From Cloeon dipterum (Eukaryota > Arthropoda > Insecta > Ephemeroptera > Baetidae), in NCBI RefSeq assembly GCF_949628265.1, contig NC_088789.1:3596001-3660000 (forward strand): a DNA stretch of 64,000 bases. Direction: 5' to 3'. Below the pieces are notes generated by a model that was given only the letters and a program-made list of their open reading frames with translations, made no database searches and was not told the DNA's origin. Positions 60,301 to 62,731 of this stretch are shown in pieces (position 1 is the stretch's first letter; each line of letters begins with the position of its first letter). The translations under genes were made by a program, and so were the position numbers.

Positions 60301-62731
60301 CAACTGTATTAAAGGCGCATGCTGGGTACCGGAAGAAAAATTTCCATGCAGACGAGGCACAAATAAACTTTAAATATGTACTCATCTCTCGGTTTACCTT
60401 CAAATTAAAATTGGAATCAAAATGATAATGGCGTGGAGTCTAATCAACAATGACAATGAATCGGATTAAATCATGAAAATTATAATGGATCCCTTGCAGG
60501 TGGAACAAACAATAAGCTACCCTATTAAAAATAACGTGAGCGTAAAATGAAAATGTCTTTCCCCAAAACTAACAAATGAACATTAATGAATTTCAGTGAA
60601 ATTATGAGTATCTTGCCTGCTGCAACTTCTTACACATCTTAGCGGGCCAATCAGCGCTCGGCGGCCATTCAGGTATAAAAACTATGTCAGCTTCGCTTGT
60701 CAATGCAGCTACAAGAGCCAAGTACCTGCAAAATCCAACTAGGTTGCAACTAGTGTTCTTTGTTCGTTCGAAAACGTCCCAACGCATATTTTCACGAGAG
60801 TGAACATTTCTGGCACAAAATCTCCAAGCCACAAAAATCGAAAGGGAATTAGCATTAAACGTTTTGTAGATTAATGACTGTACAAAGGAGAAAACACTTT
60901 CTAACTCTCCCTTGCCTGATCCAGTTTTCTACAAATATGTTCTGGCCAGTCGTTTGGGTGGGGAGACTCAGGGATGAACATGAAATCAGCTTCTGAGCAT
61001 GAAGCAGCAACGCACGCTAAATATCTGTCAATGGGTTTAACACAAACTATTAAAATTGTTTATTATCCAGCCAAGGAATTTTGTTCAGAAAACCTATTAC
61101 TTTCAGCCGTTTCCGAACCTTGAGGTTAGTCACATTAAGACTCTCTATGCTCTCCTACTCTACTGTACTGCCGTGAAAGGTGTGCTGTGTTAGTATGAGC
61201 CTGACCGGTTGAAAATTCATGCAGAAAATCATCTACTTCATCAGCATTTAAGGTAAAGAATCAAGAGCCATGAAAAAGGATCATGATAGCTCTCAAAGTT
61301 TTGTTGTTTGATTGCACAACAAAATGAGGCTTTAAGGGAATAGCATGAGGTATAGGAAGTAGTCAAAATGTTTTCATGGACAGCTGAGTGAAAGTAAATG
61401 CGCAACTGCACAGAAGTTAAGAGAAAAAGGTGCGCTGAATAAAAATGAACAGGTTATGCCAATGGCTGTGTGGTGTGATCATTTCTTGCCTGTTCCAATT
61501 TTCTACACAGCTTAGAAGGCCAGTCTTGGGGTGGAGGGCTTTCAGGGCAAAACACGTAGTCTGCTTCGCTCGTGAGAGCAGCTACGATTGACAAGTACCT
61601 AGGTGTGTGCAATTAAATTCATGATCTAGGTTCTCAGACGGCTTCAGTTGAAAAAATATATAAATCCAGAGCTAAATTATAGACAGGTGCTCTTTCCCAC
61701 CAAGAAATTAGATATCCAAGGATAACCGCCCTATGAAATCGGGCTCTACAGATGTATATCCTTTGGATATCCATGGATATCCGGATACCTTTTGGATATC
61801 CTGAGGGATATCCAATTTCTTACTGGGTTATCTAGATTAAACGGCACCCCCTTTTCATAATTACGTACCCACAATGTCTGCCCATGACTTCCATAATAAA
61901 TGTGCGCTGGTGGGAATAGGCAGTGGCCGCGATGGCATCGATGGCCTCGATGATGCGGTGCAGAGCCGAGTCTGTGCCGATCGTCATGTCCGTGCCGCAG
62001 AAATCATTGTCAATCGAGCCAACCATGCCGGCAATGTGCAAGTGGCTGTACTTCGCCCTGTCCTCCTTTGTAATTTGATCTAGAAGAGAGATGAGAAAGA
62101 CCAATTATTGTCATCAAGTGTTGCTCTGGAGAAAGCACCTGTCTGGAGCAGCTCGTCCAGCAGACTTCCCCATTCCTGCCTGAAGAGGTTGGCTCCAGTC
62201 AAAGAGCCGTCACCTCCGATCACAACCAGGTTTGTAATTCCCTTCATTACCAGATTCCTCGCAGCCTTCAGCCGACCGGCTCTCTCCCTGAAGTCCGTGC
62301 AACGGGCAGAGCCAATCACAGTTCCACCCTGGAGCAATTATTACAAAAATGTTGATACCCCTGCCTTAGTTAGAGTAAAAATAAAATCGTTAAATCACTT
62401 TGTGGATAATACAGGAGACGGAAGACCAGTTCGCTTCTATGATGTTGTCGCCGCCATCGACCATTCCTTGGTATCCCTCCTTAATGAAGTAAACTTTGCA
62501 GCCTAGGTAGATGCCGAACCGTACAACAGCTCGGACAGCTGCATTCATGCCTATCATTCCAAAATTTAAAAAGCTATATATATCAAGTGCGTGAGATTAT
62601 GGAACTGGAAAATAAAAATTTTTCAATAAATTGAACGTACCTTGAGAATCACCACCGCTGGTGAACACGGCAAGGCCCTTGCCCTTGTGAGCGCCACGTT
62701 CGATTAACCTTTGCTTCTCGTTGTCAGTCAT
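57397..62731 (-). CDS. Pfk: ATP-dependent 6-phosphofructokinase
   Basis: Cytosolic glycolytic enzyme that phosphorylates fructose 6-phosphate, 789 residues, the usual length of animal double-domain PFK. Exons: 62731-62641, 62550-62399, 62328-62139, 62079-61869, one of three alternatives (61598-61490, 61024-60916, 60725-60617), 60167-59979, 59634-59356, 58827-58681, 58621-58310, 58256-58157, 58104-57880, 57818-57596, 57538-57397; phases close. The catalytic half has [50 protein letters not shown] (active-site Asp) and the PFK signature [15 protein letters not shown]. The regulatory half repeats the fold: [52 protein letters not shown] and [17 protein letters not shown]. The ATG follows an acceptor (atttacag) by 21 bases, so a 5'UTR exon lies upstream. 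Exon 10 ends in a GC donor (GCCG|GCAAGG). Confidence 0.96.
59003..59023 (-). other. Pfk: candidate 21-base microexon of Pfk
   Basis: Between exons ending 59356 and starting 58827. A good acceptor (ctcacccacgcag) and a good donor (TCG|GTAAGG) enclose 21 bases in phase 0, encoding QMTLCGS. A second, weaker 21-base candidate (59179-59199, GSAALRK, donor AAG|GTAAAG) lies upstream. The insertion point is the linker just before the second domain, where extra residues would be tolerated. Confidence 0.4.
60617..60725 (-). other. Pfk: Pfk mutually exclusive exon, variant 3
   Basis: 109 bases encoding [20 protein letters not shown], then [16 protein letters not shown]. Acceptor ttttgcag; donor GCAG|GCAAGA, a GC type. 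Closest to the remembered constitutive PFK sequence. Confidence 0.88.
60916..61024 (-). other. Pfk: Pfk mutually exclusive exon, variant 2
   Basis: 109 bases encoding [20 protein letters not shown], then [16 protein letters not shown]. Acceptor attgacag; donor TCAG|GCAAGG, a GC type. It is the most diverged of the three. Confidence 0.88.
61490..61598 (-). other. Pfk: Pfk mutually exclusive exon, variant 1 (first in transcription order)
   Basis: 109 bases encoding [20 protein letters not shown], then [16 protein letters not shown]. Acceptor cctag; donor ACAG|GCAAGA, a GC type. Same length and phase as the two exons that follow. Confidence 0.88.
61698..61828. repeat. GGATATCC-rich palindromic element
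   Basis: Ends are inverted (caagaaattagatatcc and ggatatccaatttctta). Several copies of the self-complementary ggatatcc lie inside, especially 61762-61815. It sits in the Pfk intron just before the first mutually exclusive exon. Confidence 0.7.

What the first reader, a model, noticed from the sequence alone, without database searches (positions are those of the whole stretch)
60617..61598. Three mutually exclusive Pfk exons, all with GC splice donors
Three homologous 109-base exons lie in a row, with the same length and phase. Each completes the same Gly codon of the upstream exon and the same downstream exon starting ERAAGQ. They can only be used one at a time: using two would add 109 bases and break the frame, since 109 is not a multiple of three. 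The exon boundary fits the remembered family sequence (LQQ then ER). Every one of the three ends in CAG|GCAAG, the best-known GC donor consensus. GC donors are rare (about one percent of introns), so three in three suggests that the ancestral exon had a GC donor and that it was kept, perhaps because a weak donor helps exclusive choice. The variable residues (about 215-251) lie in the catalytic half just after the active-site strand.
Basis: partly seen in the sequence, partly recalled or inferred. Interest (0 to 1): 0.72.

Follow-up and report, generated by a model that had tools for sequence, protein, structure and literature searches.

The report
Three swappable exons in insect phosphofructokinase
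The gene for the glycolysis enzyme phosphofructokinase in this insect-like animal carries three interchangeable versions of one exon, probably giving three differently tuned enzymes; such an arrangement is already listed for the fruit fly, and the unusual GC splice sites shared by the three copies are real but may simply be inherited from the exon they were copied from.

Summary
On the minus strand of the only PFK gene found in this 190 Mb genome lie three homologous 109-nt exons, A 61490-61598, B 60916-61024 and C 60617-60725, of one phase, with intact frames and CAG|GCAAG donors. None, any two, or all three give a premature stop. Synonymous sites are near saturation while the peptides stay 62-70% identical, so these are old, constrained exons. 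A three-exon Pfk cluster is already listed for D. melanogaster (PMC6071210 section 12), so the class is known. The idea that weak GC donors aid exclusive choice is not supported: in the same genome 26 exons of 8 other clusters all have GT donors, one constitutive Pfk intron also has GC, the Pfk donors are otherwise stronger than average, and invariant-residue codons keep the same third base in all three exons at 6 of 20 places, so inheritance alone suffices. The exon aligns with the bacterial effector-site switch E187/F188; the F188 position is Tyr, Phe or Ile. So the likely effect is on allosteric control (inference). There are no RNA data, and no relatives could be compared.

The parts
61490..61598 (-). 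Exon A (5'-most), [37 protein letters not shown]
   Evidence: 109 nt, acceptor CACCTAG, donor CAG|GCAAGA, open frame
60916..61024 (-). Exon B (middle), [37 protein letters not shown]
   Evidence: 109 nt, acceptor TTGACAG, donor CAG|GCAAGG, open frame
60617..60725 (-). Exon C (3'-most), [37 protein letters not shown]
   Evidence: 109 nt, acceptor TTTGCAG, donor CAG|GCAAGA, open frame
61485..61489 (-). GC donor of exon A (GCAAG)
60911..60915 (-). GC donor of exon B (GCAAG)
60612..60616 (-). GC donor of exon C (GCAAG)
61869..62079 (-). Constitutive upstream exon ending ...[10 protein letters not shown], donor GTACGT
   Evidence: spliced alignment to PFKM
59979..60167 (-). Shared downstream exon starting ERAAGQ
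   Evidence: spliced alignment to PFKM
58105..58156 (-). Constitutive Pfk intron that also has a GC donor (TGCCG|GCAAGG)
   Evidence: kept at all three GC penalties

Best explanation
This is a mutually exclusive exon cluster in the phosphofructokinase-1 gene, made by old tandem duplication of one exon that most likely already had a GC donor. One of the three is spliced between the MGRHCG exon and the ER exon. Products with none, two or three are cut short by premature stops (shown from sequence) and presumably destroyed by nonsense-mediated decay (inferred). The choice changes up to 16 of 37 residues around the position aligned to the bacterial effector-site switch (E. coli E187/F188), so the likely effect is tuning of allosteric control rather than of catalysis (inferred). 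The GC donors are U2-type sites with an otherwise near-ideal consensus; inheritance from the ancestral exon explains them and no special role in exclusivity is needed. What picks one exon (trans-acting factors, RNA pairing) is not shown.
For: Equal length and phase, intact frames, in-frame joins for each exon singly and premature stops for every other combination. Homology E 5e-15 to 3e-11. Third codon positions differ at 22, 18 and 29 of 37 codons; NG86 dN/dS about 0.10 (A-B) and 0.18 (A-C), B-C saturated. All three N-halves match Pfam PFK at 336-346 bits. GC is a minor but ordinary donor in this genome: 2 of 120 introns in 14 other gene models, 1 of 11 constitutive coding Pfk introns. Third base identical in all three exons at 6 of 20 invariant-residue codons, 3 of 7 where all are pyrimidines. 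D. melanogaster Pfk is listed as a three-exon cluster (PMC6071210 section 12).
Against: No expression data: use of the exons, exclusivity and decay are inferred. Two neighbours could in principle be spliced together, since the introns between exons (465 and 190 nt) are long enough. The allosteric reading rests on alignment; the aligned E187 position itself is invariant (Asp) in all three. The inheritance reading of GC cannot be separated from constraint in one genome.
Confidence: 0.72

Rival explanations
1. The GC donors are required: as in C. elegans let-2, a GC donor makes the exon depend on an activator, so each exon is skipped by default and only the activated one is used.
For: All three copies keep GC although synonymous sites are near saturation. 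GC-AG introns often switch to GT (only 5 of 26 C. elegans GC introns are GC in C. briggsae) and GC in let-2 intron 10 is essential for regulated splicing (PMC2490688, passages).
Against: 0 of 26 donors in 8 other clusters of this genome are GC; the rest of the Pfk donor is stronger than average; 6 of 20 invariant-residue codons keep the same third base in all three by descent; one constitutive Pfk intron also has GC.
Confidence: 0.17
2. Exclusive choice is set by competing intron RNA structures (docking and selector sites), as in Dscam.
For: Ivanov and Pervouchine hypothesise this for MXE genes in general and name Pfk among the multi-exon clusters (PMC6071210 sections 12 and 15).
Against: In none of six intron pairs does predicted pairing exceed dinucleotide shuffles (whole-intron duplex z from -0.28 to 1.26; best contiguous stem reached by 18 to 91 of 100 shuffles). 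One genome only, so covariation could not be tested.
Confidence: 0.25
3. One or two of the three are relics that are never spliced in.
For: No expression data were available.
Against: All frames and splice sites are intact despite near-saturated synonymous change; dN/dS is well below 1 in the two pairs where it can be computed.
Confidence: 0.05

Closest known systems
Drosophila melanogaster Pfk mutually exclusive exon cluster (listed with 3 exons in PMC6071210, section 12)
   Same: Same gene, same number of exons, same type of splicing.
   Different: The paper as read gives no coordinates or donor bases, so whether the exon is the same one and whether its donors are GC could not be checked; the Drosophila sequence is not in the collections searched.
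C. elegans let-2 exons 9/10 with a GC donor (Farrer et al. 2002, known here only through passages of PMC2490688 and PMC7242645; that exons 9 and 10 are mutually exclusive is recalled)
   Same: Alternative exons, GC donor.
   Different: There GC was shown to be needed for regulation; here that is untested, and all three copies rather than one intron have GC.
MXE arrays of muscle myosin heavy chain, Atp-alpha and 14-3-3zeta in the same genome
   Same: Tandem homologous exons of equal length and phase.
   Different: All 26 scanned exons have GT donors.
PKM1/PKM2 and the human PFKP MXE event (PMC7954323, passages)
   Same: Exon switching in a glycolytic control enzyme, thought to alter allostery.
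   Different: The residue the paper names for the PFKP event is 539 (its S17 legend), not the region of this exon; PKM is another enzyme.

Membership tests
Mutually exclusive exon cluster | Adjacent homologous exons of equal length and phase | tested here: met
Mutually exclusive exon cluster | Each exon alone joins both neighbours in frame; other combinations break the protein | tested here: met
Mutually exclusive exon cluster | Exactly one exon in each mature mRNA | not testable with these tools
   no RNA data
Eukaryotic phosphofructokinase-1 | Two fused PFK halves with the conserved MGRHCG and QRGG motifs | tested here: met
   spliced alignment to PFKM; Pfam PF00365 for the N-half with each exon; E below 1e-63 to PDB PFKM/P/L chains for the segment with exon C
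GC-AG (U2-type) introns | GC donor with strong remaining consensus and AG acceptor | tested here: met
   3 of 3 cluster donors, 91st percentile apart from +1/+2; shared acceptor TAG at 60168
GC-dependent regulated splicing (let-2 type) | Changing GC to GT abolishes regulation | not testable with these tools
   needs a minigene
Docking/selector RNA-structure MXE | Competing complementary intron elements | tested here: inconclusive
   no excess over shuffles in any of 6 intron pairs; one genome only

The most novel reading that the evidence does not exclude
The three exons are swappable allosteric cartridges: each sets a different residue (Tyr, Phe or Ile; Trp in human) at the position of the bacterial effector switch F188, and the all-GC donors are an anciently conserved device that makes every copy dependent on an activator, so that a glycolytic control point is set by splicing factors in a let-2-like way in insects.
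Probability: 0.13. Interest if true: 0.6.

Novelty: new member of a known kind. Interest (0 to 1): 0.36.

Why it matters
Phosphofructokinase is a main control point of glycolysis. Three exon choices that change its N-half effector region would let one gene serve tissues with different energy demands. The donors are also a simple test of whether GC donors in alternative exons are functional or only inherited: if orthologues of distant insects keep GC in every copy, the let-2 principle would extend to insects; if not, the case is ordinary.

Tried and rejected
(1) A fourth exon or a PFK paralogue: none found by tblastn over the window or by PF00365 over the genome, where all 9 scored matches lie in this gene. 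(2) Steric exclusion: introns of 465 and 190 nt are longer than many spliced introns modelled here (50-60 nt). (3) RNA docking/selector pairing: no excess over shuffles; weak AT-rich complementary pieces near the exon A acceptor (I3, I5, I6) were not pursued. (4) GC donors as a general MXE feature: 0 of 26 exons in 8 control clusters. Counted were same-length copies; length-shifted readings of the same copies and the VCP AAA-domain paralogue were dropped. One further copy, of the Mhc P-loop exon, has a different length; read by eye its donor is probably AGA|GTAAGT, also GT, and it is not in the 26. (5) MXE donors weaker in general: one-sided p 0.24; the seven-copy Mhc array is the clearest weak one (0 of 7 with +5G). 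(6) LWL85 worked for one pair and YN00 for none, so NG86 is used. (7) Aligner results overruled: in Pfk, GC at 59382 was replaced by eye with GT at 59358, and two terminal introns (63345, 57449) were dropped; in UBA1, a GC call beside a one-base exon was treated as an artefact. Some terminal introns of other models are probably spurious too; the 93-intron filtered set allows for that. (8) Papers: the search for phosphofructokinase with GC-AG, exon and alternative splicing returned one paper, on barley; PMC3228551 and PMC3923563 hold neither Pfk nor GC-AG, PMC3912159 no GC-AG. The ten searches were made; most subscription papers are not held. (9) No structure prediction was run.

Full report
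WHAT IS THERE. Its muscle myosin gene carries several arrays of same-length exons, as described for arthropods (PMC3912159, passages), so I call it an insect-like arthropod without naming a species. A PF00365 search of the whole genome gives 9 matches, all in one gene at C4:3653736-3658551, this window's minus strand. Spliced alignment to human PFKM recovers both halves of the enzyme. Between the exon ending [10 protein letters not shown] (61869, donor GTACGT) and the exon starting ERAAGQ (60167) lie three 109-nt exons: A 61490-61598, B 60916-61024, C 60617-60725. Their peptides are identical at 24 of 37 (A-B), 26 of 37 (A-C) and 23 of 37 (B-C) residues; tblastn E-values among them are 5e-15 to 3e-11, and the next best hit in the window has E 0.16.

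ONE AT A TIME. A, B or C alone gives an open frame; none, AB, AC, BC or ABC gives a premature stop. The introns between the exons (465 and 190 nt) are longer than many introns modelled here (50-60 nt), so exclusion is not steric. Nonsense-mediated decay of wrong products is an inference.

AGE AND CONSTRAINT. Third codon positions differ at 22, 18 and 29 of 37 codons (A-B, A-C, B-C). NG86 gives dN 0.39, dS 3.7 (A-B); dN 0.25, dS 1.4 (A-C); dN 0.37 with dS undefined by saturation (B-C). LWL85 worked only for A-C (dS 1.0) and YN00 for none. With dN/dS near 0.10 and 0.18 in the two computable pairs and intact frames in all three, the exons are old and constrained. The N-half with each exon scores 336-346 bits against Pfam PFK.

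THE GC DONORS. All three read CAG|GCAAG. The aligner, which uses exon B, keeps GC at penalties of 0, 6 and 13; for A and C the frame and the equal length place the donor. For background I modelled 14 other genes of the same genome by spliced alignment to recalled human proteins: CLTC, SERCA, Atp-alpha, two 14-3-3, VCP, two HSP90, muscle myosin and a second myosin, UBA1, PYGM, PKM and ENO1. Of 120 introns, 3 were called GC; the UBA1 one sits beside a one-base exon and is treated as an artefact, leaving CLTC AAG|GCAAGG and Atp-alpha GAG|GCAAGC. With at least 40% identity on both flanks 93 introns remain, with the same three calls. In Pfk, 1 of 11 constitutive coding introns is GC (58156, CCG|GCAAGG); the aligner's GC call at 59382 was overruled by eye for GT at 59358. 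Published animal data put GT-AG at 98.3% of introns (PMC7072748, passages).

DO GC DONORS GO WITH EXCLUSIVE SPLICING? I scanned the first ten of those models and Pfk for same-length homologous copies of each exon of 14-140 residues; UBA1, PYGM, PKM and ENO1 were not scanned. Eight other clusters appeared: Atp-alpha (2 and 4 exons), 14-3-3zeta (2), and muscle Mhc (2, 4, 7, 2 and 3). All 26 donors are GT. A further Mhc P-loop copy of another length probably also has GT. Without +1 and +2, the 26 score 2.9 bits on average against 3.3 for 113 constitutive GT donors (one-sided Mann-Whitney p 0.24), while the Pfk three average 6.2, the 91st percentile. So GC is not a general feature of such clusters here, and apart from +2 the Pfk sites are not weak. 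The seven-copy Mhc array lacks +5G in 7 of 7.

IS THE RETENTION STRIKING? The three donors are not independent. Nine clusters were seen in all, so at about 2% a GC-founded cluster is expected in roughly one such survey in five (my estimate). As a yardstick inside the exons, the third base is the same in all three copies at 6 of 20 codons with an invariant residue, and at 3 of 7 where all are pyrimidines. Retention of C at +2 is thus compatible with descent alone. Against that, only 5 of 26 C. elegans GC introns are GC in C. briggsae, and in let-2 the GC donor is essential for regulation (PMC2490688, passages). One genome cannot decide.

WHAT THE EXON CHANGES. It corresponds to human PFKM 213-249, and 16 of 37 residues differ among A, B and C. 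Aligned with E. coli PfkA (sequence checked against 1pfk; literature numbering is one lower than the chain count), the invariant Asp of SEAD matches E187 and the next residue, Tyr, Phe or Ile, matches F188. A 2026 preprint describes E187 as coordinating Mg-ADP's magnesium and F188 as a switch between two cores, and names A181, V189, V194 and F196 in the same networks (PMC12889660, passages). Of these six residues, four align to positions that differ among the exons (F188, V189, V194, F196) and two do not (A181, E187), against 16 of 37 overall: suggestive only, and the alignment has a gap just after F196. In human PFKL the equivalent site holds inhibitory ATP in the T state (PMC12203962, passages). 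Inference: exon choice tunes allostery more than catalysis.

HOW ONE EXON IS CHOSEN. Not shown. Pairing among the four cluster introns does not exceed that of shuffled sequence, and no relatives could be compared. A 132-bp terminal-inverted-repeat element in the first cluster intron (61696-61827) has 42 matches in the genome, itself included, and is unlikely to be part of the mechanism.

KNOWN OR NEW. D. melanogaster Pfk is listed as a three-exon MXE cluster (PMC6071210 section 12), so the gene and the class are known. I found no held paper on GC donors in it (and passages), which says little because most subscription papers are not held. Verdict: a new member of a known kind, with a real but probably inherited oddity at the donors.

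Noticed in passing
window 61696-61827: A 132-bp element with 22-bp terminal inverted repeats (MITE-like) in the intron upstream of exon A; 42 matches in the genome, itself included.
   Followed up: partly
window 59003-59023 and 59184-59192 (- strand): Two candidate in-frame microexons (21 nt QMTLCGS and 9 nt QPF, donors GTAAGG) in the intron between the two PFK halves; unverified, may be chance.
   Followed up: no
window 58105-58156 (- strand): A constitutive Pfk intron of 52 nt with a GC donor (TGCCG|GCAAGG) in the C-half.
   Followed up: partly
L014/L015 (G000 C1:23754500-23774200): Muscle myosin gene with a seven-copy exon array whose seven donors all lack G at +5, unlike 82 of 113 constitutive GT donors.
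   Followed up: partly
L023 (G000 C4:3682000-3690000): A 14-3-3zeta gene with a duplicated same-length exon lies about 25 kb beyond the window end on the same contig.
   Followed up: no
window exon C, 60617-60725 (- strand): A GT donor-like site (TGT|GTAAGA) lies 17 nt inside exon C and would break the frame if used.
   Followed up: no
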